Assembly (NCBI RefSeq): GCF_963668385.1
Contig: NZ_OY764327.1
Span: forward strand, 4,436,501 to 4,500,500
Length of the DNA: 64,000 nt
Direction: 5' to 3'
Origin: an uncultured Carboxylicivirga sp.
Lineage (GTDB): Bacteria; Bacteroidota; Bacteroidia; Bacteroidales; Marinilabiliaceae
Shown in pieces: positions 3,563 to 50,188 of the stretch. Below the pieces are notes generated by a model. It was not told the origin of the DNA and did no database searches. It was given only the letters and a program-made list of their open reading frames with translations. Every line of letters starts with the position of its first letter. The first letter of the stretch is position 1. The position numbers and the translations under genes were made by a program.

Positions 3563-3565
3563 AAA

Positions 3566-5317: not shown

Positions 5318-5338
5318 TAAATATTGATGAACACCAAT

Positions 5339-5370
5339 AATGCCCTGTTATCTATGGGTAATGGGGCATT
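5339..5370 (+). promoter_or_regulatory. Intercistronic hairpin between binding-protein and enzyme genes
   Basis: A 12-bp stem (two G-T pairs) closes an 8-base loop in the 98-bp gap between the LamG lipoprotein and the first GH144 gene. There is no T-run after it (GTAAAATC follows), so it is unlikely to be a strong terminator. It may protect or process the mRNA so that susCD-type genes and enzyme genes accumulate differently, which is an inference. Confidence 0.5.
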
Positions 5371-5415
5371 GTAAAATCGTATTCTCTTAAAATACTTCCC
5401 AATAAAAAGTTATTC

Positions 5416-7380: not shown

Positions 7381-7415
7381 AAGTGATTAGCTGAAATCGA
7401 CAAAAAATAATTAAG

Positions 7416-8792: not shown

Positions 8793-8802
8793 ACTAATTG
8801 TC

Positions 8803-37077: not shown

Positions 37078-39615
37078 ATGACTGAAGGAGAAAGAATAAT
37101 AAAAATAAACATTGAGGAAGAGATGAAATCGGCCTACATTGATTATTCAATGTCGGTGATTGTTTCTCGTGCTCTGCCTGATGTTCGCGATGGTATGAAA
37201 CCCGTTCATCGTCGTGTTTTATTTGGAATGAGCGAACTTGGTGTTGCCTCAAACAAACCTTATAAAAAGTCTGCCAGAATTGTGGGAGAGGTGCTTGGTA
37301 AGTTTCACCCTCATGGCGATTCATCGGTTTATTTTGCAATGGTACGTATGGCTCAGGAATGGTCTTTACGATACCCTTTGGTTGACGGACAAGGAAACTT
37401 TGGATCTGTTGATGGTGACAGTCCTGCCGCAATGCGTTATACCGAGGCTCGCTTAAATCGTTTGGCTGAAGAAATGTTGGTTGATATTGAAAAAAACACT
37501 GTTGATTTTCAATTGAACTTTGATGATACCATTAAGGAACCAACTGTTTTACCAACCCGTATTCCTAACCTTTTGGTAAACGGAGCATCAGGTATTGCTG
37601 TAGGTATGGCAACAAATATGCCTCCTCATAATTTAACCGATACAATTAAAGCAACAATAGCCTATATTAATAATAATGATATAGAAATTGATGAATTAAT
37701 TGATATTATAAAAGCTCCTGATTTCCCTACTGGAGGTACTATTTATGGTTATCAAGGAGTTAAAGATGCATATCATACAGGTAAAGGGCGTATTGTTATT
37801 CGTGCTAAATCCGAGATTGAAACCGAGAGTAATGGACGTGATAAAATAATTATCACCGAAATACCATATATGGTTAACAAGGCAGAGCTAATTATGAAAA
37901 TTGCTGATCTTGTTAATGATAAAAAAATTGAAGGTATCTCAAATGTTAACGATGAGTCTGACCGTCAAGGAATGCGCATTGTTATCGATCTAAAAAAAGA
38001 TGCAATAGCAAATGTGGTATTAAACCACTTATATAAGTATACCGCACTTCAATCTTCGTTTGGTGTAAATAATATCGCATTGGTTAATGGACGTCCTCAA
38101 TTATTAAATTTAAAAGGACTAATTCAGGCTTTTGTTGAGCATCGTCATGATGTAGTTACTCGTCGTACGCAATATTTATTAGATCAAGCCGAAAAACGAG
38201 CTCACATTCTTGAAGGATTAATTATTGCCAGCGATAATATTGACGAAGTAATCAAAATTATTCGTGCAGCTCAAACTCCAGATGAAGCTCGTGAGAACTT
38301 AATTGCAAGATTTGAGTTAACCGATATTCAAGCTCGAGCAATTGTTGAGATGCGTTTGCGTCAGTTAACAGGTCTTGAACAAGATAAGTTAAGAGCTGAA
38401 TATGAGGAGTTGATGAAAGAAATTGCTCATTTGAAAGAAATTCTTGAGAATTATCAAATGAGAATGGATATTATTAAAGAAGAATTAGAAGAAGTAGTGG
38501 CGAAGTATGGTGATGATCGTCGCACTGAAATAGTATATAGTTCTGAAGAATTCAATCCTGAAGATTTCTATGCCGATGACGAAATGATTATTACTATTTC
38601 GCATTTGGGATACATTAAACGTACTCCATTGGCTGAATTTAAAACTCAACATAGAGGAGGAGTGGGTTCTAAAGGTTCAACCACACGTGACGAAGATTTT
38701 ATTGAATATATTTACCCTGCTTCGATGCACAATACCATGATGTTCTTTACCAAAAAAGGTAGATGCTTCTGGTTGAAAGTGTATGAGATTCCTGAAGGAA
38801 CAAAAGCATCGAAAGGTAGAGCTATTCAAAACCTATTAAATATTGATCCGGATGATAAAGTAAAAGCTTTTATTAAAGTGATGAAATTGAATGATGAAGA
38901 GTATGTAAACTCTCATTATATCATCATGGGTACTAAAAAAGGTATCGTCAAAAAGTCTTTGCTGAAAGATTATTCTCGTCCGCGTATTAATGGTGTTAAT
39001 GCAATTACCATTAAAGAAAATGACGAATTATTACAAGCCAGATTAACATCAGGAACTACTGAAATATTAATGGCATCTCGCTCCGGTAGAGCTATTCGAT
39101 TTAACGAAACTCAGGTAAGATGTATTGGACGTACAGGAGCCGGAGTACGTGGAATAACACTGGGCTCGGAGAGTGACGAGGTAGTTGGCATGATATGTGT
39201 TGAAGATATGGAAACAGAGGATATCCTGGTTGTTTCTGAAAAAGGTTTTGGAAAACGTTCCAAAACTGAAGAATACCGAGTAACTAACCGTGGTGGAAAA
39301 GGTGTGAAAGCCATGAAAATTACGGAAAAAACGGGAGAACTTATTACCATTAAAAACGTAACAGACGAAAATGATTTGATGATTATCAATCGTTCAGGTA
39401 TTGCAATTCGTTTGTCGGTTAAAGGAATGAGAGTTACCGGAAGAGCTACTCAAGGTGTACGCTTAATAAATCTATCTAAAAAGCAGGACGAAATAGCATC
39501 TGTAGCTAAAGTAAATGCTGAAGAATTAGAAGATGCCAAAATGGAAGATGTAGATAATATCGAAGGAGAAACTCCTGATGTTGATACTACAGAAAACCAA
39601 GAGGCAAACGAATAA
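37078..39615 (+). CDS. gyrA: DNA gyrase subunit A
   Basis: 845 residues. Breaks and rejoins DNA during negative supercoiling as an A2B2 complex with GyrB. The catalytic Tyr is Y121 ([10 protein letters not shown]). The quinolone region reads [18 protein letters not shown]82 and S83 stand at E. coli Ser83 and Ala84, and F86 at E. coli Asp87. The C-terminal beta-pinwheel has the repeated units ([44 protein letters not shown]), and the tail is acidic. The GyrA-box is less clear, so a ParC-type assignment is possible but length and tail fit GyrA. Confidence 0.93.
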
Positions 39616-39662
39616 AGAAAATTACAATTACTATTATAGACAATAAACTAAAACTTTTTGAA

Positions 39663-40820
39663 ATGAAAAAAGTCGCGCTATTAACATTGTTAGTATTAGG
39701 TATGACTTCTGCTTTTGCTCAGAAGGGAAAAGTAGCTGCAGCAAGTCAGTTTCTAACAACAAATAATCTAGATAAGGCTAAAGAAGCAATAGATCTAGCA
39801 TTACAGCACGAAAAATCAATCGATTGGCCAAAAACTTATATTGTAGCAGCTAAAGTTTATACTGAGCAATATAAGTCTAGTAAAGATATCGAGGATATGA
39901 AAAAAGCCTTTGGCTTCTACCAAAAAGCTATTGAATTAGACCAAAAAGGTGATGCTAAAGGAAAAGGTATTGGTAAATTCGAAAAAGAAATAAAATTAGC
40001 CTTAACTATGTTTAAGCCTGATTTGACTAATGCAGGTATTGATGGTTTTAACACTGAAAATTTCGAAGCTGCATTATTTTCTTTTGAAAGTGTACTAAAA
40101 GTAGGTCAACTTCCAATTATGGAAGAAACTGCAGTTGATACAGCTATTGTATACAACTGTGCTTTAGCAGCTTATAATGCTAAAGATTGGGCCAAGTCAG
40201 AAAAGTATTTTGATCAGGCTATTGATTTAAAATATGGTGGTGGTGATGCTGTATTATTATTAAATCAAGTTTTTCAAACAACTGGTGATTCATTAAAAAT
40301 TGGTGAAAATCTTAAAAAAGGTTTTGAGACTTATCCTGAAGATGATCGTATCTTAACAAATTTGATTCAATTTTATCTTGATAGCCAACAAAATGAAGAG
40401 GCTTTAGAGTATTTGAATAAAGCAATCGCAGGTGATCCTAATAATGCAGTTTTCTATTATGCACGAGGTGTTTTATACGAAAAAATCGATCAGGAAAAAG
40501 CTATTGCTGATTACAATAAGTGTTTAGAGATTGATCCAAGTAACTTTAATTCATTGTATAACTTAGGTGTTGTTTATTATAATAAAGGTGTTGAGCAACA
40601 AAATGTTGCGAATGATAAAACAACTACCAAAGAATTTAATGCAGCAATGGAAATAGCTAACGGTTACTGGAAGCAAGCGTTACCATACATGGAAAAAGCT
40701 CTTGAAGTAAGACCTGACGAAGCAGCTGTATTAGAAACGTTAAAAGGTTTATATTACCGTTTCGAAGATATGGATAAATACAATGAAGTTAAAGCTAAAT
40801 TAGAAGCTTTAGGACAATAG
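39663..40820 (+). CDS. Secreted tetratricopeptide-repeat protein
   Basis: 385 residues; signal peptide ends AFAQ. TPR helices repeat through the chain (AIDLALQHEKSIDWPKTYIVAAKVY; ALEYLNKAIAGDPNNAVFYYARGVLYEK; AIADYNKCLEIDPSNFNSLYNLGVVYYNKG; YMEKALEVRPDEAAVLETLKGLYYR). It is a periplasmic protein-protein scaffold of unknown partner. It follows gyrA by 47 bp and may be co-transcribed, ending at the terminator at 40847. Confidence 0.85.
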   Translation: MKKVALLTLLVLGMTSAFAQKGKVAAASQFLTTNNLDKAKEAIDLALQHEKSIDWPKTYIVAAKVYTEQYKSSKDIEDMKKAFGFYQKAIELDQKGDAKGKGIGKFEKEIKLALTMFKPDLTNAGIDGFNTENFEAALFSFESVLKVGQLPIMEETAVDTAIVYNCALAAYNAKDWAKSEKYFDQAIDLKYGGGDAVLLLNQVFQTTGDSLKIGENLKKGFETYPEDDRILTNLIQFYLDSQQNEEALEYLNKAIAGDPNNAVFYYARGVLYEKIDQEKAIADYNKCLEIDPSNFNSLYNLGVVYYNKGVEQQNVANDKTTTKEFNAAMEIANGYWKQALPYMEKALEVRPDEAAVLETLKGLYYRFEDMDKYNEVKAKLEALGQ

Positions 40821-40846
40821 TACTCAATGATATTGATAGAATATAA

Positions 40847-40876
40847 AAGCCAGACTTAAACGTCTGGCTTTTTTTG
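40847..40876 (+). terminator. Rho-independent terminator after the TPR gene
   Basis: AAGCCAGAC/GTCTGGCTT (9 bp) with 6-base loop and seven-T tail. Confidence 0.93.
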
Positions 40877-40999
40877 TATTAAATTAGTTATAATACTATT
40901 GCTTTATTATACTTATTCCTGTAACACCAATACTAATTACAAATACTTCTAAATTCATATTAGCAGTCAGTTATATAAGTATGAAATTTCAACACATGT

Positions 41000-41027
41000 A
41001 AATAACATAATATCAAAGATTAGACAT
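41000..41027 (-). repeat. Left dif-like attachment site
   Basis: On the minus strand it reads XerC-type half ATGTCTAATCT, centre TTGATA, and XerD-type half TTATGTTATTT. The last differs from the E. coli dif XerD half (TTATGTTAAAT) at only two of 11 places. Centre and XerD half recur exactly at 47763. One of the two sites includes the resident chromosomal dif half; which one cannot be told here. Confidence 0.7.
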
Positions 41028-41057
41028 TTTTCTATCTACAAGCCCCATTTATCAACG

Positions 41058-41081
41058 TTCCAATCTTTACAAGAGTTGGAA
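41058..41081. promoter_or_regulatory. Isolated hairpin inside the prophage left end
   Basis: TTCCAATCTT and AGAGTTGGAA pair at nine of ten places around TACA. There is no T-run on either side, so it is not a terminator. In an ssDNA phage such an intergenic hairpin may serve as replication origin or packaging signal; inference only. Confidence 0.35.
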
Positions 41082-41171
41082 TGAAAAGCAGATGAACACT
41101 AATCTTAAACAATCTATTTAGATCAATTATAAATTAAATTGTTATAATATAACTTCATCTTAATAACACAA

Positions 41172-41209
41172 AAAAAAAAGGAGGTTGCACCGTTGTACAA
41201 TCTCCTTTT
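41172..41209 (-). terminator. Prophage operon terminator
   Basis: GGAGGTTG/CAATCTCC (one G-T) with 10-base loop; on the minus strand it is followed by at least nine T. It ends the phage transcript after the lipoprotein gene. Confidence 0.92.
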
Positions 41210-41270
41210 AAGTCGAAAAATTTATTAATCTTAATGTCCTTATAGAACAAATAAATATAACATTTTTCCT

Positions 41271-41756
41271 TTAATATCTTTGAGCTCGCCAACATACCAT
41301 AACACCATCAAACAATGCACTATCAGGATCGCCATCTTCATAGTTTACAAACTCTTCAAACAGAATGAATCCTAAATCAGTATTAGAATTATTAGGGGTC
41401 ACCTGTTTAACAATTATACCATTAAATTTAAAATTTAATTTACCCGAACCAGCCCAATCTTTTAAATGTCCTAAGCGACACATGTATAAAACACCGTCTT
41501 CTTTAGCACGTTGAGTAACATCGCTCATTTCTATTACTTCAGTTTCAACAGAAACACGATCACTATTTAAAAAATCCATAGCGATATCCTTAAACTCATT
41601 CTTATCTAAGGTTGAAAATTCTAATTGCATATCTTCACTTTTTTTTGGTTTTAAATATTCTTTTGTACAGCCATTCAAGCCCAGCCCAAACGACACGAAC
41701 AACAACAACAACAAGCAGATTTTTAAATTCTGCAATGGCTTGAATAATTGTTTCAT
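41271..41756 (-). CDS. Prophage lipoprotein, last gene of the phage operon
   Basis: 161 residues from the ATG at 41756 (a GTG lies one codon upstream). SPII signal with lipobox LGLNGC, Cys 30; the mature part begins TKEYLKPKKSED. Nothing beyond the signal is recognised; the region VLYMCRLGHLKDWAGSGKLNFKFNGIIV and an acidic FEEFVNYEDGDPDSALFDG stretch are notable. Position just before the operon terminator, and overlap with a small membrane protein frame, suggest a role in lysis or in changing the lysogen surface (superinfection exclusion). Function unknown. Confidence 0.75.
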   Translation of the reverse strand: MKQLFKPLQNLKICLLLLLFVSFGLGLNGCTKEYLKPKKSEDMQLEFSTLDKNEFKDIAMDFLNSDRVSVETEVIEMSDVTQRAKEDGVLYMCRLGHLKDWAGSGKLNFKFNGIIVKQVTPNNSNTDLGFILFEEFVNYEDGDPDSALFDGVMVCWRAQRY

Positions 41757-41802
41757 CACTTATTTTGCTTATTATTGTGACATATCCGAGCCACTCGGAC
41801 AT
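41635..41802 (-). CDS. Small membrane protein overlapping the lipoprotein gene
   Basis: 55 residues from the ATG at 41802: MSEWLGYVTIISKISDETII, then a hydrophobic LLVVVVVRVVWAGLEWLYKRIF segment and a KTKKK tail. 122 bp overlap the lipoprotein gene in another frame, where the lipoprotein signal is coded, so hydrophobicity may partly be a by-product. Overlapping membrane-peptide/lipoprotein pairs recall spanin or holin arrangements, but the order of segments is not typical. The start codon lies in a hairpin (41785-41799). Confidence 0.4.
   Translation of the reverse strand: MSEWLGYVTIISKISDETIIQAIAEFKNLLVVVVVRVVWAGLEWLYKRIFKTKKK
41785..41799. promoter_or_regulatory. Perfect short hairpin between opposing prophage frames
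   Basis: TCCGAG-CCA-CTCGGA, six GC-rich pairs and a three-base loop in AT-rich DNA. It covers the first codons of the 55-residue frame and lies upstream of the small + strand frame at 41837. It could tune translation or serve in replication. Confidence 0.4.
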
Positions 41803-41836
41803 AAACACAAATGTTTTACTTATTAATAATCTTAAC

Positions 41837-41995
41837 ATGTTACTATCAATTTTACTACAAACCCAAACCATAGAAGGAACTGAAATAGGTTTAATAAGAA
41901 CATTTTTAATCCTTAGTGTAATTCCTTTATTTATTGGTTTTAGATTAGGTATTCGTTATATGAAATGGAAATCAAAACGTGATATTAAGTCCTGA
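41837..41995 (+). CDS. Possible small single-pass membrane protein on the opposite strand of the prophage
   Basis: 52 residues from the ATG at 41837. A polar start (LLQTQTIEGTEIGL) is followed by one transmembrane segment (FLILSVIPLFIGFRLGI) and a basic tail (RYMKWKSKRDIKS), a sensible positive-inside protein. It fills a gap with no minus-strand gene and overlaps the annexin-like gene end by 24 bp. A longer start at 41765 is unlikely. It would be the only + strand gene of the phage; existence is uncertain. Confidence 0.4.
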   Translation: MLLSILLQTQTIEGTEIGLIRTFLILSVIPLFIGFRLGIRYMKWKSKRDIKS

Positions 41996-42373
41996 CTTAT
42001 TCCATATATTTCTCATTTTTATAAGGTCTTTACCGCTTAATTCTTTAGAAAACCAACCAAATAAATCCAGTGAATTCATAGCAAATGAAGCACCACCAAA
42101 AGCATAGGACTTATTCCCAAAAGCTTTATAGACCTTAACAAGTTCAAAACCATCTAAATTATCCAAAGCATTAAACATCGCTTTTTCATCAGTTCCCCAG
42201 TTTTGCATAGACGAATACAAAATATCACTAATAGATTTATACACATCTACATCACTAAAACCGCTTATTTTGGTTATCCATTTCTTAAATGGAACAAAAA
42301 ACAGCAATGGGAGCAAAAGCACCCACCACCATTTTTTTATCAATTGATTAAATGTTTTTCCACGCTTCCTCAT
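41972..42373 (-). CDS. Prophage membrane protein with annexin-like repeat
   Basis: 133 residues from the ATG at 42373 (another at 42382). One transmembrane segment near the N-terminus (WWWVLLLPLLFFVPF) is followed by a domain with SSMQNWGTDEKAMFNALDNL, ELVKVYKAFG and DLFGWFSKELSGKDLIKMRNI. This order, with GTDE then a helix set ending in a (K/S)ELSG motif, is close to one eukaryotic annexin repeat (GLGTDE ... SELTG). Annexin repeats bind membranes, often with calcium. In this phage it may be a capsid-membrane linking protein. Start overlaps the preceding lytic gene. Confidence 0.7.
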   Translation of the reverse strand: MRKRGKTFNQLIKKWWWVLLLPLLFFVPFKKWITKISGFSDVDVYKSISDILYSSMQNWGTDEKAMFNALDNLDGFELVKVYKAFGNKSYAFGGASFAMNSLDLFGWFSKELSGKDLIKMRNIWNKSGLNITF

Positions 42374-42866
42374 ACAGCTCATAGTCTAAATCAAATTGAC
42401 TTTCAATCTTACACATAGCTTTTGCAATGGAATAAATTACATCTTTTTGCCACTCAAAAACAGCTTCACGAGGTATGCCCGTTTTCCCAGCTACATAATC
42501 AATGTAATCTTCCGTATTATTTTCCGTCTCAGGAGCCCAAACAGATATTAACTTTTCAATTGTTTGATTACCACGATTAAACCAAGTTCGCATATTACGA
42601 AGCCCAGCACGTAAACCCCACATCATTGAATCGAATTCCTCAAACTCTGGATCTAAATCTTTAGAGCTTTCATGTTTCCAATCAATATTGGTTTGACGTA
42701 GGTTTAAAGGATTATTATTTTTCACACCTCTTGTCTGATCACTACCAAAGTTTGGCGTAACCTCTTGTACTTTCTTTCTTCTTACAACTGCCATAATAAT
42801 AAATGGTATAGCGCAAAGGATGATTATTGCAATCACCCAAAGCAAGATTTTATTAATCTTTTTCAT
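42348..42866 (-). CDS. Membrane-anchored phage peptidoglycan lytic protein
   Basis: 172 residues from the ATG at 42866, which overlaps the end of the small gene before it; an ATG at 42905 would add 13 unlikely residues. One N-terminal transmembrane segment (ILLWVIAIIILCAIPFIIMAV). The domain GVKNNNPLNLRQTNIDW, FDSMMWGLRAGLRNM and LISVWAPETENNTEDYIDYVA is the well-known phage structural-protein/lytic-transglycosylase-like family (NNPxNxR, APxxEN). Such enzymes open the cell wall at infection. The membrane anchor recalls PRD1-type virion-membrane lysins. Confidence 0.82.
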   Translation of the reverse strand: MKKINKILLWVIAIIILCAIPFIIMAVVRRKKVQEVTPNFGSDQTRGVKNNNPLNLRQTNIDWKHESSKDLDPEFEEFDSMMWGLRAGLRNMRTWFNRGNQTIEKLISVWAPETENNTEDYIDYVAGKTGIPREAVFEWQKDVIYSIAKAMCKIESQFDLDYELYEEAWKNI

Positions 42867-42990
42867 TGGTATTCTCGTTTGCTTCAAGAACCGCTTTTGC
42901 CGCATCTATAGCAGCATCAATTGCGCGAACTATCTTTGTAATTACCTTGATTTTATCAAGAACATTGACAACATTTTTTAGCCACTTCAT
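42853..42990 (-). CDS. Small prophage protein of 45 residues
   Basis: Too short for usual ORF calling, but it sits exactly between a stop (42992) and the next start (42866) with a 14-bp overlap, as expected of a packed phage operon. MKWLKNVVNVLDKIKVITK then an alanine-rich amphipathic helix and an acidic end. It may be a minor virion or membrane-associated peptide. Function unknown. Confidence 0.55.
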   Translation of the reverse strand: MKWLKNVVNVLDKIKVITKIVRAIDAAIDAAKAVLEANENTNEKD

Positions 42991-42991
42991 A

Positions 42992-43423
42992 CTAACGACG
43001 TTTTAAATAAGTTCCAAAATAACCACCGTTAGCCGCGTTCGGATTGGCAACCATTGTTAAAGCTGGAATAGTCAACTTTTTAGTAGTAGGATTAAAAAAT
43101 CCTGTATGCCAAACCTCTTGAATACCCATAGTAATTTTAACCATCCAAAGTTCAGTGTTACCACCGTTAGGATGTTTAATTTTACTTTTCGTCTTATGCG
43201 GTGAAGCAATGAAAGACATAAAACCTTTACGGCTTTTATTCCATCCTGTCATAACTTCAGCACCGTTTTTTGCATTTGGATTGTATTTACAACCCGATTT
43301 TTTGCGAGGCCTTGAGTTATGATATTGTGGTCTAAAATTATTAGCCACGTATGATTGACCGTTATACGGTTGAGGATATCCAAATCCATTTGGAAACCCA
43401 TTATATTGATATGGTTGTGCCAT
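42992..43423 (-). CDS. Prophage Tyr/Asn/Gly-rich basic protein
   Basis: 143 residues. The first ~45 are low complexity, rich in Tyr, Asn, Gln, Gly and Pro, followed by a basic RPRKKSGCKYNPNAKNG stretch and a compact region (GFMSFIASPHKTKSKIKHPN ... ELWMVKITMGI ... TKKLTIPALTMVANPNAANGGYF). Basic patches and high pI suggest nucleic-acid contact, for instance a genome-binding virion protein. No family recognised. Tight between neighbours (2 bp and 1 bp). Confidence 0.65.
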   Translation of the reverse strand: MAQPYQYNGFPNGFGYPQPYNGQSYVANNFRPQYHNSRPRKKSGCKYNPNAKNGAEVMTGWNKSRKGFMSFIASPHKTKSKIKHPNGGNTELWMVKITMGIQEVWHTGFFNPTTKKLTIPALTMVANPNAANGGYFGTYLKRR

Positions 43424-43425
43424 GA

Positions 43426-44040
43426 TTAGCGTCTTCTTTTTCTACGGTTTGACTTAGGTTTAAAAATCACATATAGTGCATACAACGCACCAAGAGGAAG
43501 AACCACAAAAAGCAAAATCTTTTTCCAGTCACGTTGCAACCATGCAACGAACTTTGACCAGTATGCCTTAACTTTATCCATAAAGTTACTTTTAGCAACA
43601 TTGCCCGAATCACTGCTTTTACTGGAAGCCTTAAAGCTCATTGTTTGAAATGACGGAGCACTTAAAGCTTGTTTAGCCGTACCCGTTGTACTGACAGGTT
43701 TTTCGCTAATACCCTCGGCAGCAGCTTTAACACCTGTTACAACTTGGTCTAACATTGCTTCACTTGGTTCAATACCATTCTTTTTCAATGTGGTAACAAC
43801 TTTGTCAACTTTTACTACACCATCAGAAACAACTTTAGAAACCATCTCTCCAGCTTTTGTCTTACCAATAGCCTTTGTTAATGCAGCAACACCAGCGCCA
43901 GCAATCGGACCAGCTACAGCAGTAGCCGCAAGACTTAAAACCGTTTTACCCACACCAGTTGAAGCAACTTTCCCAGCAAATCGGCCAACACCTTTAGCGG
44001 CTTTACCTATTGCTTTTCCTATTTTTTTAAAGAATCCCAT
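43426..44040 (-). CDS. Prophage Gly/Ala/Lys-rich protein with C-terminal membrane anchor
   Basis: 204 residues. The N-terminal ~70 residues are amphipathic and glycine/alanine/lysine-rich (FFKKIGKAIGKAAKGVGRFA; AGPIAGAGVAALTKAIG), like membrane-active minor capsid peptides. A helical middle and Ser-rich linker follow, then one transmembrane segment (~174-193, ILLFVVLPLGALYALYVIF) and an Arg/Lys tail. It lies right after the candidate capsid gene and has a strong Shine-Dalgarno. It may sit in an internal virion membrane. No family assigned. Confidence 0.68.
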   Translation of the reverse strand: MGFFKKIGKAIGKAAKGVGRFAGKVASTGVGKTVLSLAATAVAGPIAGAGVAALTKAIGKTKAGEMVSKVVSDGVVKVDKVVTTLKKNGIEPSEAMLDQVVTGVKAAAEGISEKPVSTTGTAKQALSAPSFQTMSFKASSKSSDSGNVAKSNFMDKVKAYWSKFVAWLQRDWKKILLFVVLPLGALYALYVIFKPKSNRRKRRR

Positions 44041-44051
44041 TTGTAAACTCC

Positions 44052-44057
44052 TTTCTA
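44052..44057 (-). promoter_or_regulatory. Strong Shine-Dalgarno for the 204-residue phage protein
   Basis: Minus strand reads GAAAGGAGTTTACAAATG. Strong Shine-Dalgarno sites are unusual in Bacteroidota genes, so this points to high late expression or a foreign gene. Confidence 0.6.
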
Positions 44058-44077
44058 ATTTATAATAAATCAGGCTT

Positions 44078-44785
44078 TTAGGCCTGATCTATAAAGATTA
44101 ATTCATATGAGTTACCGGCCGTTTTTTCAATCTTCACGGTTTCAACATCAGCAATAGCAACTAAAGCCAGTGTTTTATAACCATAAAAAGCAAGTTCACC
44201 AGCTCCGGTATCTTGCACGGCACACAAATCATTTTCCTTCTCCATTTTTGCCATTAATTCAGCAGGAGTATAGGTTACAGATTGACCGTTAGTTTTGATT
44301 AACTCAACTTTTACAAGGTCGGTAAGTGGAAAAGCAGCAAGTTCTTTGTCAACTACACCATACTCTTTTAAAGTCTCATCACTATTGATTGTGATAGGAT
44401 GATAAACGATAACACGCTCAACTATCTCACCGTCTTCCATTCCATACACCTCATAAGATTTCGCAGAATCCAGAGAAGAAAGATCAATCTCTAAATATCG
44501 TTGATCTGATAAAGCGGCAGCGCCGTCCATACCAATCGCAATAATACCACGACTACCCGTGTTTTTGTCAATGAATAATCCCTCACCCTGAGAAGCTACT
44601 TCGAAAAGTTTTTCAACCAACATACGGGGCGAAACCTGTTCATGAGTTCCTTTAGTACCTGACACACGAGAAATTTCCACCTTTTCACCATTCCAATTAC
44701 CATTTTTAGTAATCAAAACCTCTGATACTGGTTTGTAAATTCTGACTTTGCGGTCTTGTCTACCGCTAATTGTTTCAATTTTCAT
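44078..44785 (-). CDS. Candidate prophage major capsid protein with internal duplication
   Basis: 235 residues, rich in beta strands, no signal or membrane segment. Residues 20-118 and 157-233 look like two copies of one domain. VSEVLITKNG matches LVKVELIKTNG, SPRMLVEKL matches TPAELMAKM, and GLFIDKNTGSRGIIAI...SYEVYGMED matches DLCAVQDTGAGELAFY...SYELIFID. A tandem beta-domain fits a double jelly-roll capsid protein, although it is shorter than PM2 P2 (about 269). Position (first gene after the regulatory terminator) also fits. The jelly-roll fold itself is inference. Confidence 0.6.
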   Translation of the reverse strand: MKIETISGRQDRKVRIYKPVSEVLITKNGNWNGEKVEISRVSGTKGTHEQVSPRMLVEKLFEVASQGEGLFIDKNTGSRGIIAIGMDGAAALSDQRYLEIDLSSLDSAKSYEVYGMEDGEIVERVIVYHPITINSDETLKEYGVVDKELAAFPLTDLVKVELIKTNGQSVTYTPAELMAKMEKENDLCAVQDTGAGELAFYGYKTLALVAIADVETVKIEKTAGNSYELIFIDQA

Positions 44786-44786
44786 T

Positions 44787-44851
44787 AGTCGATCTTTTAA
44801 TTTTTAATTTGAAATCGACTTCAAAAAAAAAGCACCCAAAGAGGGCGCTTT
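44787..44851 (-). terminator. Terminator and dyad between early and late prophage genes
   Basis: On the minus strand, AAGCGCCC/GGGTGCTT (44830-44850) plus a nine-T run terminates after the HTH gene. Below it, a 7-bp inverted repeat (AGTCGAT 44787-44793, ATCGACT 44814-44820, 20 bp apart) sits just before the capsid start codon, a possible operator or 5' leader stem. Confidence 0.65.
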
Positions 44852-44888
44852 TACATAACTTTACTTTACTTTCTATTTTTATCGTTTT

Positions 44889-45092
44889 TTAGACGTTTTT
44901 AGGGCTTTTCATTAAATCAATTGCATATTTACATTCTTGAACTGTTAAGCCCTCATATTTAGCTAAATGATTAATTAAAATACGTCCTTTTCGTTTTATA
45001 TTTAAATAATTCTTAATTTCTGTAATACGGTGAGAAGCCGTAGGAGTGGAGCACCCATAAAAATCTGCTATATCTTGTCTTGTAAGTTCCAT
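44889..45092 (-). CDS. Small prophage HTH DNA-binding protein
   Basis: 67 residues. ELTRQDIADFYGCSTPTASHRITEIKNYLNI is a helix-turn-helix with a recognition helix at TPTASHRIT; the second half has LINHLAKYEGLTVQECKYAIDLM. Similar size to excisionase or Cro-like control proteins. It lies between the replication genes and the early/late terminator, so it may control the late capsid promoter or the lysogeny choice. Confidence 0.68.
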   Translation of the reverse strand: MELTRQDIADFYGCSTPTASHRITEIKNYLNIKRKGRILINHLAKYEGLTVQECKYAIDLMKSPKNV

Positions 45093-45146
45093 ATTTTTAA
45101 TGATTTACACCCGAAAAGCGGCAAAGCACGCTTTTTCTAGCTTAGT

Positions 45147-45443
45147 TTATTGGTTTAGTTGATAGATTTTTGATGATAAATCGTTGATATATTGATCAAT
45201 TCCAGCATATAAAGAAAAATCAATCATATTACTTTCAAAATCTATTCGTGTAACTATTAGAGAATCAGTTTTTATCCAAAACGAACCGAAAAAGTAAAAG
45301 GACATATCCAATTTTAATTTATTTCTATTCCGTGAATCAGTATAATAACTCAAAGTGGCAGATTCAAAGTCTAAACCAGTCGCAGCTAAAAACCTTAATT
45401 TATTTTCATTAAAATCTATCTTATTTAAAAAGTGTGTTTTCAT
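45147..45443 (-). CDS. Prophage protein of unknown function following Rep
   Basis: 98 residues, mostly beta-type (FLNKIDFNENKLRFLAATGLDF; LKLDMSFYFFGSFWIKTDSLIVTRIDF). It overlaps the Rep stop by 4 bp (ATGA), so it is translationally coupled and may help replication. No family recognised. Confidence 0.62.
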   Translation of the reverse strand: MKTHFLNKIDFNENKLRFLAATGLDFESATLSYYTDSRNRNKLKLDMSFYFFGSFWIKTDSLIVTRIDFESNMIDFSLYAGIDQYINDLSSKIYQLNQ

Positions 45444-46576
45444 ATGTTTAGATTTAATTGTTGAAAGCCTGGCTTTATTATTTCTTCTTTTTCTGGTTGT
45501 GTTTCTACTTCAGTAATTTTATTTAATTGCTCATTTTCAAACGATTCAATATTTTTTTCACGTGTAAATATATCTTTACAATGTTGATCAAATTCAGTAG
45601 GAATTTTTTTGAATCCTTTATATCGTAGCTGATCAATAGGCACACCAAGTGAGATCACATTATCAGATTCAAATACTTTATTCTTTGTACTATACATTGA
45701 AATCATCTCAATAAATTCATCACTATATTCGTTTTCGTCTGGTATCTCAATTATTAGATTTTTCATTTTAGACACTGCCTGAGAAGAGAACCATATACGC
45801 CCATCTACAGCCAACATTGATTTATCCACATTCTTTGCTTTGTGTTCTTTACTCATGTACTTTGCTATATAAGCACCAACATTATTAACCTTTTTAAGAT
45901 TCTCAATATCTGTTGTATTAGGCTGCATCCAGTTAGTTAACTGACCATATCTAAAAGCCTTTTTTATACGAGAACGAAAAACTTTTTCACTCTCAAACTT
46001 TGGTTTAAACTCCTTTTTTCTTAATTCCCAATAGCCCGACCAATCCAAAGCAGACATTTTTTTATGATATTCATAAGTATAACCCAACTTATTACAAATA
46101 CGATTCCAGCGTTCTCTAATTTCTAAAGCAGGTATAAAACGATCTAGTAACAAATGAAAATGTAAATTACCGTTGAATTGTTTTTCTGCTTTCCAAATGA
46201 ATTTTTCAACATCATAAACGTTTCTTAATTCAGTTAACATTTGATTTAAAAGAACCTTTTTAATTTCCTTATCACTATGCACCTGTTCTGATGGCAAAGT
46301 CAGAGTAAGAAAGGTTACTTTGTTTTTATTCTTCCCATAATTAACTATAGCAGGGTCAACCGAGTATAAAAACCAATAAACCGCACGCTCCAGAGCAGTA
46401 GCACCTTTTTTAGATATAAAACCCTGTTCTTTGTTCGGGGCTTCTGGTTTCTTTCCTTTCAATGGGTGTGCATGACCTTCATAAGTCATGTAAGCAGTTA
46501 TGCGTGTGGGGGATATACTCAAACATGGATATTTAACCATGCCATTTGTAAGAATTATAGGAGATAAATCAATCAT
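45440..46576 (-). CDS. Rolling-circle replication initiator (HUH endonuclease, two-tyrosine type)
   Basis: 378 residues. Motif 1 is VTFLTLTLPS (~87-96), motif 2 (metal) is HFH in NLHFHLLLD (H139, H141), motif 3 is YIAKY (Y236, Y240) followed by MSKEH, the two-Tyr spacing of phiX174-type/superfamily I initiators. It nicks and religates the replicative form during rolling-circle replication. WNRICNKLGY and the C-terminal DELIE-type helices are phage-typical. This is the firmest phage gene. Confidence 0.9.
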   Translation of the reverse strand: MIDLSPIILTNGMVKYPCLSISPTRITAYMTYEGHAHPLKGKKPEAPNKEQGFISKKGATALERAVYWFLYSVDPAIVNYGKNKNKVTFLTLTLPSEQVHSDKEIKKVLLNQMLTELRNVYDVEKFIWKAEKQFNGNLHFHLLLDRFIPALEIRERWNRICNKLGYTYEYHKKMSALDWSGYWELRKKEFKPKFESEKVFRSRIKKAFRYGQLTNWMQPNTTDIENLKKVNNVGAYIAKYMSKEHKAKNVDKSMLAVDGRIWFSSQAVSKMKNLIIEIPDENEYSDEFIEMISMYSTKNKVFESDNVISLGVPIDQLRYKGFKKIPTEFDQHCKDIFTREKNIESFENEQLNKITEVETQPEKEEIIKPGFQQLNLNI

Positions 46577-46653
46577 TTTCTTTGTGTTATATGCTAATTT
46601 TTGACTTCTGGGAGTATTGACAAGCCAACCAAAAAGGGGTGTAAAACCCCTTT

Positions 46654-46890
46654 TTATTTTGCCAATGCGTAGTATTTTTCAGGATTTTTCAATTCTGTTC
46701 TAAGTGTTACAAATTGACCAGTATGACACATTAATTTTTCAAGATTTAAAAGCCTTTTTTCGTAGACAGGTATATTATTAATATCATTATCAAAATAGTA
46801 CGAATTCAATTTCGCTTTTACTGTTAATATCCTAAAATACAACTCCATTATATTTATCTTTTTCATACTCTTTACTCTTTTATTAGTCAT
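46654..46890 (-). CDS. Small prophage protein of unknown function
   Basis: 78 residues: a basic start, then a helical ELYFRILTVKAKLNSYYFDN and YEKRLLNLEKLMCHTGQFVTLRTEL. It overlaps the DUF3850-like gene by 8 bp, so it belongs to the early operon. No family recognised. Confidence 0.58.
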   Translation of the reverse strand: MTNKRVKSMKKINIMELYFRILTVKAKLNSYYFDNDINNIPVYEKRLLNLEKLMCHTGQFVTLRTELKNPEKYYALAK

Positions 46891-47125
46891 TTAACAAATC
46901 AATTGACAAAACACAATATCTATGAGACAACATCTCCGTATCTCTAAGAATGAATGTAACACGGACTTCAACAAATTGACCTGTATAACCTTCAATACCA
47001 AATTCCCTTAACATCAAGGTATCACCAACTTTATAACCACGATCATCATAACGAACTTCAAACTTTTTAACACCAAGCTTAACAGCTTGATAGTACATTG
47101 GATAAATTTTTAAATCATGAACCAT
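46883..47125 (-). CDS. DUF3850/ASCH-like prophage protein
   Basis: 80 residues. VHDLKIYPMYYQAVKLGVKKFEVRYDDRGYKVGDTLMLREFG...GYTGQ matches the DUF3850 pattern (HxLKxxPxYFxxVxxGxKxFExRxNDRxFxVGDxLxLxEY), a small PUA/ASCH-like fold thought to bind RNA and common in phages. It is 2 bp after the first early gene. Exact role unknown. Confidence 0.8.
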   Translation of the reverse strand: MVHDLKIYPMYYQAVKLGVKKFEVRYDDRGYKVGDTLMLREFGIEGYTGQFVEVRVTFILRDTEMLSHRYCVLSIDLLND

Positions 47126-47127
47126 AA

Positions 47128-47709
47128 TTAAACAACTTTAGACATTGATATATTGGTTATATCCATAAAACGGGCTCGATCTGTAGATCGAATTGCTTTC
47201 AATTGTTCAAATTCATTTAGACCACGTTCTATTAGATTTATTTCATTTTGATAATTAGTTAGCTCATATTTCAAAGCAGTTAAATTTTTTCTTTCCACTA
47301 ATACATTTAACTCATAACAGGCATTACGCAAGCTGTTTATACAATAATAAAAGGCAGAGAAAACAATATAATTACCATTTTGAGAGGGTGACATCCATAC
47401 AGACTTATTAAGAGAATCAGAAACACCAATGAATAATTCATTCAAATTTCTTTCTGCTTTAAATATTGGAGCTTGCTTACTATTAGCACTTGGAGAAAAG
47501 AGAAGATAATTTTGTCTATACGTTACAAATACATTTGTATAGACATGATTTATAAAGGCTAATTGTTCAGTAAGAAACTTTGAGGTTTTTCTTAGGAATG
47601 AAATAGCTTGCTTTTCTTGCTTAAACTCGAACTCAAAACCGTTTCCAAGTTTTACAAGATAATTCTCGTCAATTGTTTTACTATATGTCCGTAATTCAAT
47701 CTTTTTCAT
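47128..47709 (-). CDS. First early prophage gene, unknown function
   Basis: 193 residues from the ATG at 47709 (MKKIELRTYSK). Alternative starts at 47724 (ATG) and 47733 (TTG) would lie inside an inverted repeat. Contents: beta-rich N-terminal half, a helical C-terminal half (VLVERKNLTALKYELTNYQNEINLIERGLNEFEQLKAIRS) that looks coiled. No family recognised. First gene of the leftward operon. Confidence 0.6.
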   Translation of the reverse strand: MKKIELRTYSKTIDENYLVKLGNGFEFEFKQEKQAISFLRKTSKFLTEQLAFINHVYTNVFVTYRQNYLLFSPSANSKQAPIFKAERNLNELFIGVSDSLNKSVWMSPSQNGNYIVFSAFYYCINSLRNACYELNVLVERKNLTALKYELTNYQNEINLIERGLNEFEQLKAIRSTDRARFMDITNISMSKVV

Positions 47710-47710
47710 T

Positions 47711-47744
47711 CCTGTTAATTGCATTAATTGCAATTCGTAACAGG
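47711..47744 (-). promoter_or_regulatory. Inverted repeat at the head of the prophage early operon
   Basis: CCTGTTAATTGCA and its near-inverse TGCAATTCGTAACAGG (two-base bulge) face each other just before the first early gene and 19 bp from the right dif-like site. It is well placed for a repressor. Confidence 0.45.
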
Positions 47745-47762
47745 AGCAATTTTAATAAATAA

Positions 47763-47790
47763 AAATAACATAATATCAAATATAGGACAC
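47763..47790 (-). repeat. Right dif-like attachment site
   Basis: On the minus strand: XerC-type half GTGTCCTATAT, centre TTGATA, XerD-type half TTATGTTATTT. Eighteen bases are identical with the left site, and seven of 11 match in the XerC half. The change from identity to similarity at the central region fits Xer recombination. Confidence 0.7.
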
Positions 47791-47864
47791 GAACGCGTTA
47801 TTTAAATGAAAGAATCTAATTAGTTCATTTAACTTAACAATAACATATAATCTAAAAATTCGAC

Positions 47865-47958
47865 AAATTAAACAACTTATTAGTTGATATCGGTAAATTT
47901 CAATATTTAAGAAATTAAACAACTTATTAGTTGATATCGGTAAATTTCAATATTTAAG
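47865..47958. repeat. Perfect 47-bp tandem repeat, two copies
   Basis: 47865-47911 and 47912-47958 are identical. Each starts AAATTAAACAACTTATTAG and ends CAATATTTAAG. A third, diverged relative lies near 48119-48180 downstream of the intact serine hydrolase, and so the unit probably came from that gene's 3' flank. Confidence 0.92.
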
Positions 47959-47979
47959 AATAAGATATTTAGATACACT

Positions 47980-48048
47980 TTAAAAATCAACCATAGGTCG
48001 ATTTTTATTAGAAGTATGTGTATGACCTAACTCAAATAAGTTTAGATT
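47980..48048 (-). pseudogene. Remnant of a second serine-hydrolase gene tail
   Basis: Minus-strand codons read NLNLFELGHTHTSNKNRPMVDF and a stop, aligned without gaps to NQNLFELDHTWASNKKRPQVIY, the end of the intact gene at 48190 (15 of 22 identical). No upstream part of the copy is present. It is a leftover of a duplication, now next to the prophage. Confidence 0.75.
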
Positions 48049-48189
48049 GAGTATTTATTTTTGTTATTAATGGCTAAAACAATTTTAATATTTAACAATA
48101 ACTAATCCTTTTAGAATTCGATAAAATCAAGCAGCTTAATAGTTGTTGGTAATTTTTAATATTAAAGGATTAATGTTTTGAGGTATATT

Positions 48190-49518
48190 TTAATATATAA
48201 CCTGTGGACGTTTTTTATTAGAAGCCCAAGTATGATCTAACTCAAATAAGTTCTGATTAGGCCATTCTTTAATTTTAGAAATTCCTCGTTCCATAACACG
48301 CTTAATATCTGAAGCTAAAGCGGGACCTTTCCAGTTGCCGGTGTTAGATAGAAATACGTATGAAATTCCATCATCTCTACGAACTAATAAAGCCGATGTT
48401 CCTGCAAGTGTACCTGTACGTACCCATGAATTGGAAGTTATTCGTCTCCATCCTAATGGACTATATCCCAAATGACTTGGTGTAGTCATCGTTTTAATAC
48501 TTTTTGTATTTAACATATTGGGATAAGTATTGAATCCATCAACAGATAGCATTAGCTTCATCAAATCAGTAGATGAAGCAATCCAACCACCCGCAGCACC
48601 AAGTGTATGCATGTCGTTACCTCCATAAGTACGCAAAACTTGATCTCCATTTCCTGTATAATCATCAACATAAAATGTCTGTTCAGGCTCGTAATAAATA
48701 ACTTCTGATTCAGCTCTTTCATTACGATGACTTCCACCAAGTTGCATATCATATATACCTAATGGGTATAATACATTTGTTTGTATGAATTTTTCATAAT
48801 CAATACCAGAAGTTTTTTCAATTACCTGACCAAGAATCATAAAACCTAAATTTGAGTAATAAGATGATTCTCCTGGTGTAAAGTGAAGTCTTTTAGCAAG
48901 TACAAACCGAATTATATCTGATTCATTAATAGGTAGTTCTTTATGCAAATTATGAGCTATGGTTGTAGGCATAAACATTTGATCGCCCCAACGAGTTGTC
49001 CATCCACCACTGTGCTCTAATAAATGTCTTACAGAAATATCTTCTACTCTTTTATCTTTATAATGAAGATAAATAGAGTCATTTAAAATACCATTCGGAC
49101 CAAATACTTTATCATCTAAACTAATTTGACCTAATTCATGCAGTTTCATAATACCTATTGCGGTAATAAGCTTAGATACACTGGCAATTCTAAATAAATT
49201 ATATGGTTCTACCGCATCACGAGCTTCTTTGTCGGCATAACCAAATCCTTTGGCGTAAACTAATTCTCCGTTTTTAGCAATAGCAACGGAAGCACCAACA
49301 ATATGTTCGCGATGCATAAACCGATTTATTTGCTTTTCGATGTATGCAAAATCCTCATTATCAGAATAAAAGTTGTTAAGATGAAACGAAGTAGCTTTAT
49401 TTTTTGGGGGTGTGAAATCACTACCAAATGAGTCTGTCATTGGGTAAAAAATAGTAGCACTCCCCCATAAAAATGTTCCGACTACTACTGCTATGGATGT
49501 TTTCAGTAATAATCTCAT
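48190..49518 (-). CDS. Serine hydrolase of the beta-lactamase/PBP class C family
   Basis: 442 residues with an N-terminal signal anchor (~1-25). SxxK is S113-VS-K116 (IASVSKLITA), YxN is in YYSNLGF, and the third motif may be the RTGTLAGTSA region. The N-terminal acyl domain has HIVGASVAIAKNGELVYAKGFGYAD. Such enzymes act on D-Ala peptides, esters or beta-lactams outside the cytoplasm; resistance is not implied. Its tail is duplicated in truncated form beside the prophage. Confidence 0.88.
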   Translation of the reverse strand: MRLLLKTSIAVVVGTFLWGSATIFYPMTDSFGSDFTPPKNKATSFHLNNFYSDNEDFAYIEKQINRFMHREHIVGASVAIAKNGELVYAKGFGYADKEARDAVEPYNLFRIASVSKLITAIGIMKLHELGQISLDDKVFGPNGILNDSIYLHYKDKRVEDISVRHLLEHSGGWTTRWGDQMFMPTTIAHNLHKELPINESDIIRFVLAKRLHFTPGESSYYSNLGFMILGQVIEKTSGIDYEKFIQTNVLYPLGIYDMQLGGSHRNERAESEVIYYEPEQTFYVDDYTGNGDQVLRTYGGNDMHTLGAAGGWIASSTDLMKLMLSVDGFNTYPNMLNTKSIKTMTTPSHLGYSPLGWRRITSNSWVRTGTLAGTSALLVRRDDGISYVFLSNTGNWKGPALASDIKRVMERGISKIKEWPNQNLFELDHTWASNKKRPQVIY

Positions 49519-49606
49519 TTAAAATACAATTCTACACATTATTGCAAAAATAGTAGTTTTTGAACGTTTTGGAAAGAATTATACTTAAATTTACTTAACA
49601 TGCATC

Positions 49607-50188
49607 TTATTTGAATGGTTTAATACTACAACCAATTGCTTTTGTTGTAGTGTACTTTGGTGTCTTTCCTTGGTTTATTGCGTCAATAGCCATTTCAAGA
49701 TACTTGTCTTTTACTTTCTCAGGTTCTTGGTAATTGTCATCAATAGCACCAATATAAGCAATTTTAAATGCCTTGTCTTCATTCTTTAAAAGAAATACAT
49801 GAGGTGTTTTAGTTGCTCCATATTGTAGATATATTCCTTTATTATCAAGTAAATAAGGGAAGGCGTAGTTCTTTTCAACCATATGTGAATAGCCATCAAC
49901 TTCGTAAGCTACAGAATCATTAGGGTTTATGGCAATAACCGGGTAATTTAGTGGTTTATATTTCTTATTTAAATTAATTATACGTTGTTCGTATAATTTT
50001 GCATAAGGGCAATGATTACAAGTAAAGACTAGTATAACACCCTCTTGATTAGAAAAATCAGATAATGCAATTATATTCCCATCAGTATTTAGAAGTTGAA
50101 AATTCGGAGCTTTATCTCCTATCTTAACTTGAGCGTAAGATGTAAGGGTTAATGTAGATAGTAAAAGACTAACAAATAAAGATTTCAT
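49607..50188 (-). CDS. Secreted thioredoxin-fold (AhpC/TSA-like) protein
   Basis: 193 residues; signal peptide ends SYAQ. GDKAPNFQLLNTDGNIIALSDF is a peroxiredoxin/TlpA-type start and VFTCNHCPYAK (C57, C60) is the redox CxxC site. YGATKTPHVFLL is the cis-Pro loop. It is a thiol-disulfide or thioredoxin-family redox protein of the periplasm. It starts 4 bp after the TlpA-like gene, so they are co-expressed. Confidence 0.85.
   Translation of the reverse strand: MKSLFVSLLLSTLTLTSYAQVKIGDKAPNFQLLNTDGNIIALSDFSNQEGVILVFTCNHCPYAKLYEQRIINLNKKYKPLNYPVIAINPNDSVAYEVDGYSHMVEKNYAFPYLLDNKGIYLQYGATKTPHVFLLKNEDKAFKIAYIGAIDDNYQEPEKVKDKYLEMAIDAINQGKTPKYTTTKAIGCSIKPFK

What the first reader, a model, noticed from the sequence alone, without database searches (positions are those of the whole stretch)
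41000..47790. Integrase-less 6.76-kb prophage that looks like a small, tailless, membrane-containing ssDNA phage
Seen: dif-like 28-bp sites at both ends, one dense minus-strand operon, HUH initiator (HFH and YxxxY), candidate capsid protein with internal duplication, at least three proteins with a transmembrane segment, a wall-lytic domain, and no integrase, terminase, packaging ATPase, portal or tail gene. Known: FLiP-type (Finnlakeviridae) and some flavobacterial ssDNA phages of 6-9 kb are tailless; ssDNA phages can use host XerC/D. Inferred: this is a temperate relative, possibly a new lineage, because almost none of its proteins is recognisable.
Basis: partly seen in the sequence, partly recalled or inferred. 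Interest (0 to 1): 0.88.

Follow-up and report, generated by a model that had tools for sequence, protein, structure and literature searches.

The report
Temperate membrane-type ssDNA phage at dif
A 6.76-kb stretch of a marine Bacteroidales chromosome looks like the dormant genome of a small, tailless, probably membrane-containing single-stranded-DNA phage that borrows the host's XerC/XerD system; the kind is known from Flavobacterium, but this branch lies in another bacterial order and has a different replication gene and no recognisable spike.

Summary
Two dif-type sites (41000-41027, 47763-47790), 6,763 bp apart, bound the element at the replication terminus, beside a TPR gene and gyrA. Nine of nine genus genomes without the capsid gene have one such site beside the same TPR gene; two show both flanks.

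But the kind is published: PhiCjT23 is a temperate, lipid-containing ssDNA phage, and 57 putative dif-flanked prophages like it were reported in Flavobacterium in 2022.

New is the lineage: Carboxylicivirga/Labilibacter (6 of 71 family genomes) and two more genomes of the order. Its MCPs group apart from PhiCjT23's. Its HUH initiator is PF23343, not Rep_trans (PhiCjT23) or Phage_CRI (FLiP). No penton or spike homologue was found; in its place lie overlapping TM/lipoprotein genes and a small antisense TM gene. Activity, ssDNA and lipid are untested.

The parts
41000..41027 (+). attL, dif-type site: host XerD-side arm, central TATCAA, phage-type XerC-side arm
   Evidence: Repeat D4; its XerC-side arm differs from those of all 9 single host sites printed; arm names by likeness to E. 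coli dif (recalled)
41271..41759 (-). g15: 162-aa ORF, candidate lipoprotein (LNGC lipobox); its signal region overlaps g13 in another frame; C-terminal half variable
   Evidence: blastp in 5 of 5 relatives; lipobox-like Cys in 6 of 6 and +1 frame open in 6 of 6
41635..41871 (-). g13: 78-aa single-TM protein, Lys-rich C terminus
   Evidence: blastp in 5 of 5 relatives
41840..41995 (+). g14: small antisense TM ORF, the only one against the operon
   Evidence: blastp in 2 of 5 relatives; by eye, similar antisense TM ORFs at the same place in 2 more and in L100, none in L010
41972..42367 (-). g12: 131-aa TM protein, GTDE (annexin-like) motif; PhiCjT23 gp12 position, possible phi18:4 gp9 relative
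   Evidence: 5 of 5 relatives; hhalign 66% to phi18:4 gp9; only 3.5% to PhiCjT23 gp12
42348..42866 (-). g11: TM-anchored lytic transglycosylase of the T7 gp16 type, likely for entry
   Evidence: PHROG 873 3.1e-30; 38-39% to internal virion proteins of T7-like phages; hhalign 99.5% to PhiCjT23 gp10
42853..42990 (-). g10: 45-aa helical protein, PhiCjT23 gp09 position
   Evidence: blastp in 3 of 5 relatives; hhalign 45%
42992..43423 (-). g09: 143-aa probable virion protein with beta-barrel domain (residues 40-143)
   Evidence: hhalign 97.8% to PhiCjT23 gp07, 97.7% to phi18:4 gp6, a virion protein by MS/MS; AF2 pLDDT 70
43426..44040 (-). g08: 204-aa basic protein, C-terminal TM; PhiCjT23 gp06 / phi18:4 gp5 relative
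   Evidence: hhalign 89.7% over 31 columns and 73% over 32
44078..44785 (-). [quoted passage not shown]
44828..44852 (-). terminator-like hairpin between early genes and capsid operon
   Evidence: 10-bp stem plus T run (8 such sites in 40800-48200, 2.4 expected)
44889..45092 (-). g06: 67-aa HTH protein, PhiCjT23 gp04 relative
   Evidence: Pfam Crp 5.2e-5; hhalign 83% over 31 columns; 5 of 5 relatives
45147..45443 (-). g05: 98-aa protein of unknown function
   Evidence: blastp in 1 of 5 relatives
45440..46576 (-). g04: HUH rolling-circle initiator, PF23343 type
   Evidence: Pfam 3.3e-12; HxH and YxxKY invariant in 7 rows
46654..46890 (-). g03: 78-aa protein, unknown
   Evidence: no relative among the loci compared
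46883..47125 (-). g02: DUF3850 (ASCH-like) protein
   Evidence: Pfam 4.3e-24; blastp in 1 of 5 relatives
47128..47709 (-). g01: 193-aa first gene, conserved, unknown function
   Evidence: 60-69% identity in 5 of 5 relatives
47763..47790 (+). attR, dif-type site carrying the host's XerC-side arm
   Evidence: Over 26 nt identical to the single site of G008 and G011, 1-2 differences from the other 7

Best explanation
The element is a prophage of a temperate, tailless, icosahedral ssDNA phage with a double jelly-roll capsid, of the PhiCjT23 kind. Shown by sequence or model: the capsid protein, gene order, HUH initiator, lytic protein, dif junctions, empty sites, and host XerD and XerC-like genes. 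Inferred: the phage circle (6,763 nt) recombines at its dif-like attP with chromosomal dif through host XerC/XerD and leaves by the reverse reaction. The Rep protein then nicks the double-stranded circle and makes single strands by rolling circle. The capsid and TM proteins build a shell over a membrane vesicle around the DNA, without a packaging ATPase. The virion transglycosylase opens the wall on entry. The HTH protein and the hairpin ahead of the capsid operon are candidates for the lysis/lysogeny control.
For: MCP homology and fold. HTH-MCP-TM-143-small-lytic-TM order shared with PhiCjT23 and, less completely, phi18:4. Capsid-block genes look selected against change when compared with G007 (MCP dN 0.046, dS 1.4, near saturation). 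dif-type site at both ends, host arm at one end. One site in 9 of 9 genus genomes without a capsid match, TPR flank beside it in 9 of 9, both flanks in 2 of 9. GC-skew switch, gyrA neighbour. XerD over its cut-off, 351.5 vs 329.6 bits; the best XerC 309.8, under its 335.15. Literature: PhiCjT23 is a temperate, lipid-containing ssDNA phage, with dif-flanked prophages in Flavobacterium (PMC9719478, passages).
Against: No excision, particle, ssDNA or lipid was observed; PMC9719478 itself says that particle assembly from such prophages remains to be verified. No penton or spike homologue was found, so the prophage might not make infectious virions. The g15 ORF changes fast (dN 0.58). The MCP model is of middling confidence (pLDDT 66.5). 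No relative in IMG/VR viral contigs (uninformative by the control). G007's prophage has the opposite orientation and one atypical end. The empty-site genomes are draft assemblies; in G010 and G017 the site lies within 170 bases of a contig start.
Confidence: 0.92

Rival explanations
1. It is a decayed or domesticated prophage: capsid genes kept, vertex gene lost, no longer able to make infectious virions.
For: No homologue of PhiCjT23 gp13 or FLiP gp12/gp13. Fast-changing last gene.
Against: The core ORFs are unbroken, and the six family MCP matches hold no stop. Low dN/dS for capsid genes. All six prophages keep the same ten genes, so loss of the spike is not a private decay.
Confidence: 0.12
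2. It is a filamentous (Inoviridae-like) phage that uses XerC/D, as CTXphi does.
For: Rep matches an 'Inoviridae sp.' replication protein (25% identity, E 5e-8) and a G2P-type Pfam family. CTXphi-type phages use dif (stated in PMC9719478).
Against: No Zot-type assembly ATPase among the Pfam matches. The capsid protein is a 235-aa double jelly roll. A lytic enzyme is present.
Confidence: 0.01
3. It is a plasmid-like or satellite element that took a capsid gene and is packaged by a helper.
For: Small size; no identified vertex or lysis gene.
Against: The virion block (MCP, two TM proteins, 143-aa protein, lytic enzyme) is present and syntenic with autonomous phages of 6.5-7.6 kb. Only one MCP match in this genome, so no sign of a helper with this capsid.
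Confidence: 0.03

Closest known systems
Flavobacterium phage PhiCjT23 and PhiCjT23-like prophages (ON067806; PMC9719478)
   Same: Double jelly-roll MCP; order HTH-MCP-TM-gp07-gp09-lytic-TM; rolling-circle initiator; 6-8.4 kb; dif-flanked; temperate
   Different: Rep matches Rep_trans (weakly) rather than PF23343; gp13 spike has no counterpart found here; MCP only 21-24% identical; host order differs (recalled taxonomy; its near relative G394 is 'same class', not same order)
Cellulophaga phage phi18:4 (candidatus Obscuriviridae, with phi12:2, phi12a:1, phi48:1; PMC11946311)
   Same: 6.5 kb, one operon; relatives of MCP (gp4), TM (gp5), 143-aa (gp6) and, more weakly, 131-aa TM (gp9), all labelled virion proteins by MS/MS
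   Different: Rep_trans initiator, glucosaminidase instead of transglycosylase, gp10 in the place of a spike; isolated as free phage
Flavobacterium phage FLiP (Finnlakeviridae)
   Different: No MCP sequence match here; Phage_CRI initiator; separate penton and spike genes; 9.2 kb; said not to integrate (PMC13269007)
Corticovirus PM2
   Different: dsDNA genome (PMC7654751); nothing beyond the MCP fold was compared

Membership tests
PhiCjT23-like temperate ssDNA phages | PhiCjT23-type double jelly-roll MCP | tested here: met
   hhalign 98.9%, Foldseek top hit 7zzz_A
PhiCjT23-like temperate ssDNA phages | Replication initiator gene shortly before MCP; 6.0-8.4 kb | tested here: met
   Rep-g05-HTH-MCP; 6,763 bp
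PhiCjT23-like temperate ssDNA phages | 28-nt dif at both ends | tested here: met
PhiCjT23-like temperate ssDNA phages | Same initiator family (Rep_trans) | tested here: not met
   PF23343 here; PF02486 in PhiCjT23, E 2.9e-5 and below its curated cut-off
PhiCjT23-like temperate ssDNA phages | gp13 spike with small beta-barrel penton domain | tested here: inconclusive
   No blastp or hhalign match; a fold-level relative is not excluded. PMC9719478 mapped the spike domain in 8 prophages against 21 for the MCP, so it varies there too
PhiCjT23-like temperate ssDNA phages | Virion with internal membrane and circular ssDNA | not testable with these tools
   Needs particles
Finnlakeviridae (FLiP) | FLiP-type MCP related by sequence | tested here: not met
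   No blastp match to any FLiP ORF; FLiP gp08 not among the four best hhalign targets; only the fold agrees
Finnlakeviridae (FLiP) | Phage_CRI initiator | tested here: not met
Finnlakeviridae (FLiP) | Canonical penton gp12 | tested here: inconclusive
   hhalign 0.45% for trimmed g15; no FLiP gp12 match over 1% among the best targets of the other families
Inoviridae | Zot-type assembly ATPase | tested here: not met
   No such family in 14 of 15 proteins
Microviridae (dif-integrated gokushoviruses) | Single jelly-roll F-type capsid protein | tested here: not met
   No such Pfam match in 14 of 15 proteins; MCP is a double jelly roll

The most novel reading that the evidence does not exclude
The prophages of Carboxylicivirga, Labilibacter and other Bacteroidales are a family-level sister lineage of the PhiCjT23/Obscuriviridae group that swapped its rolling-circle initiator and builds its five-fold vertex from a protein unrelated to either known penton (FLiP's or PhiCjT23's). 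That would be a further vertex solution on the same minimal capsid. It may lyse cells, or exclude rivals, with an overlapping TM/lipoprotein gene pair.
Probability: 0.35. Interest if true: 0.6.

Novelty: new variant of a known kind. Interest (0 to 1): 0.42.

Why it matters
Kejzar et al. [quoted passage not shown] FLiP-like prophages in Sphingobacteriia were since reported (PMC13269007); the present set adds PhiCjT23-type prophages in yet another order. It shows that the capsid block stays together while the replication initiator changes. It also poses a clean structural question, what closes the five-fold vertices, in a group used to argue how ssDNA and dsDNA double-jelly-roll viruses are related. 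The lysogens are environmental bacteria.

Tried and rejected
Viral contigs (IMG/VR): five scans, with Rep, MCP, MCP alignment, Rep alignment and, as a control, PhiCjT23-type MCPs, found nothing. Since the control also found nothing, absence there is not evidence.

I first thought the lipoprotein signal of g15 might be an artefact of reading the g13 membrane segment out of frame, with translation starting at an internal Met after the g13 stop. The +1 frame is open in 6 of 6 and keeps the Cys in 6 of 6. Differences fall at g13 codon positions 1/2/3 as 166/113/157 over 15 pairs. That suits selection in both frames better than g13 alone, but the pairs are not independent and I made no statistical test; the closest pair alone (window-G007, 4/1/8) looks like g13 coding only. 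A penton role for the trimmed g15 found no support (hhalign under 0.5% against 8 targets).

Sequence-level duplication of the MCP: not found. PADLOC: no hits in 6 proteins, one of them from L013. Rfam: none at gathering threshold in 38000-50000. Sigma-70 scan: no excess (28 found, 35.4 expected), and not suited to Bacteroidota (recalled). NCBIfam named none of 10 element proteins over a cut-off. A motif filter for Xer proteins picked up one other recombinase and was replaced by ORF listing and NCBIfam.

Loci with a Rep match alone (L096-L099, L101, L102) carry none of the other gene families tested and were left out of the lineage; L098 and L099 are whole contigs of 5.3 and 4.7 kb, so absence there is weak. 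Three further genomes with weak g01 matches (G596, G600, G695) were not inspected.
Full report
WHAT IS THERE. The window lies at 4,436,501-4,500,500 of a single 6.27-Mb contig. Named relatives of the element are Marinilabiliaceae bacterium A049, Labilibacter marinus Y11, Carboxylicivirga mesophila, Carboxylicivirga sp. M1479 and an uncultured Carboxylicivirga. So the host is most likely a Carboxylicivirga; this is inferred from the company it keeps. The element is bounded by two dif-type sites 6,763 bp apart. I take 15 ORFs as genes, 14 on the minus strand.

SITE AND INTEGRATION. The site pattern (up to 2 mismatches) is found in 14 of 14 genus genomes, with no match to the backward control. 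Nine of those genomes had no capsid match and have one site each; the TPR flank lies beside it in 9 of 9 and both flanks in 2 of 9. In those two, the right-hand match starts about 400 bases beyond the site, at the beta-lactamase-fold gene. A TPR gene and gyrA lie on the left of the site in the window. GC skew is positive at 4.29 Mb and negative at 4.62 Mb and turns at the element inside the window (20 samples plus the window), which marks the terminus. In 5 of 6 prophages the TPR-side site has a variable XerC-side arm and the far site has the host's arm or nearly so (Labilibacter's is a base or two off). That is what one crossover in the central hexamer between dif and a phage site would leave. 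The sixth, G007, is inserted the other way round and has one atypical end. The host has 20 tyrosine recombinase matches, 19 over cut-off and none in the element; one is XerD over its cut-off, one a best-match XerC under its own.

OTHER VIRION GENES. Order and profiles match PhiCjT23: HTH 83% and TM protein 90% (31 columns each), 143-aa 98%, small protein 45%, lytic 99.5%; the 131-aa TM protein matches by place only (3.5%). With L043, L095 and L100 rows added for three of the families, the MCP (97.8%), 143-aa (97.7%), 204-aa (73%, 32 columns) and 131-aa (66%) proteins match phi18:4 gp4, gp6, gp5 and gp9, which its record lists as virion proteins by MS/MS. The HTH (16%) and lytic (under 3%) proteins do not match there. 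This supports, independently, that the first four are structural. The lytic protein is a T7 gp16-type transglycosylase with a TM anchor.

WHAT DIFFERS. The initiator is PF23343, against Rep_trans in PhiCjT23 and Phage_CRI in FLiP. PhiCjT23's spike has no match by blastp or hhalign. In its place lie g13 (TM), g15 (candidate lipoprotein whose signal region overlaps g13 in another frame) and the antisense TM ORF g14. A single-TM protein overlapped by a lipoprotein frame recalls Rz/Rz1 spanins, but g13's TM is C-terminal, so this is a loose analogy (recalled). Lysis or superinfection exclusion are guesses. L095 and L100 have short last genes without a lipobox.

LINEAGE. MCP relatives: 6 of 71 family genomes, own included, and, with a profile that contains PhiCjT23, 5 of 395 phylum-wide genomes, own included. 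Initiator search, order-wide: 9 of 393 genomes at E 1e-10, own included. Around Rep or g01 matches outside the family I inspected 13 loci of 12 genomes; two genomes (L095, L100) carry the capsid block with Rep and HTH. An MCP tree of 13 rows separates PhiCjT23, L041, L042 and L044 from the window group with L043, L095 and L100 (93/92, not starred; several long branches, so the deep order is unsure). The second side has this type of initiator in all nine: by Pfam in the window and L043, by similarity in the five family relatives and in L095 and L100. On the first side it is Rep_trans-like in PhiCjT23, L041 (75% identical to PhiCjT23 Rep) and weakly L044, while the L042 ORF tested gave no Pfam match. 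MCP is 93% identical between the window and G007, but Rep only 56%, so modules seem to be exchanged between these prophages.

LITERATURE. PhiCjT23 (PMC9719478: abstract, passages, section 'pentameric viral spike') is a temperate, lipid-containing ssDNA phage; 57 putative prophages of 6,021-8,407 bp were found in Flavobacterium, with a dif site reported at both ends. FLiP-like sequences in three Sphingobacteriia genomes were reported in 2026 (PMC13269007: passages and section 3.1). The FLiP group with M13-like initiators and Bacteroidetes contigs dates to 2018 (PMC5894146, passages). PMC7654751 was read whole. PMC11946311: passages and section 3.1. No paper in the library holds both 'Carboxylicivirga' and 'prophage', nor all of Marinilabili, ssDNA, prophage and capsid; a wider search listed five papers, PMC9719478 first (listing only for the others). 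Supplementary look-ups were capped at 0, so I cannot say whether the 57 published prophages include relatives outside Flavobacterium.

VERDICT. It is a new variant of a known kind: a dif-integrated, PhiCjT23-type double-jelly-roll ssDNA phage lineage of Bacteroidales with another initiator and an unidentified vertex. Lipid, ssDNA and induction are inferred from relatives, not shown.

Noticed in passing
L105 (KC821628.1) 1664-2389: Cellulophaga phage phi18:4 gp4, labelled only 'structural protein', is 36% identical to PhiCjT23 MCP and so is its likely double jelly-roll capsid protein. The record is filed under Microviridae, and PMC11946311 names gp08 the capsid protein although it also describes gp08 as the glucosaminidase.
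   Followed up: partly
L009 (G007) 3111-9718: This prophage is inserted at dif in the opposite orientation to the other five, with one atypical end site, although its capsid protein is 93% identical to the window's.
   Followed up: partly
L103 3318-10431: A compact operon with a g01-like first gene (5.8e-8), a 664-aa replication protein, a 302-aa protein that might be a capsid (no match found), a TM protein like g12 (3.1e-5) and an endolysin: perhaps another ssDNA phage lineage.
   Followed up: partly
L013 10844-11812, minus strand: G019's prophage carries an extra 322-aa ORF, membrane-anchored and coiled-coil-like by eye, between g15 and the end site; no Pfam or PADLOC match.
   Followed up: partly
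window 47834-48258: Direct repeats (47 nt tandem, 91 nt pair 210 bp apart) just outside attR, reaching the 3' end of a beta-lactamase-fold gene at 48190-49518.
   Followed up: no
window 46883-47125: A DUF3850 (ASCH-like) gene among the early phage genes; of the five relatives only the Labilibacter prophage has one by blastp.
   Followed up: no
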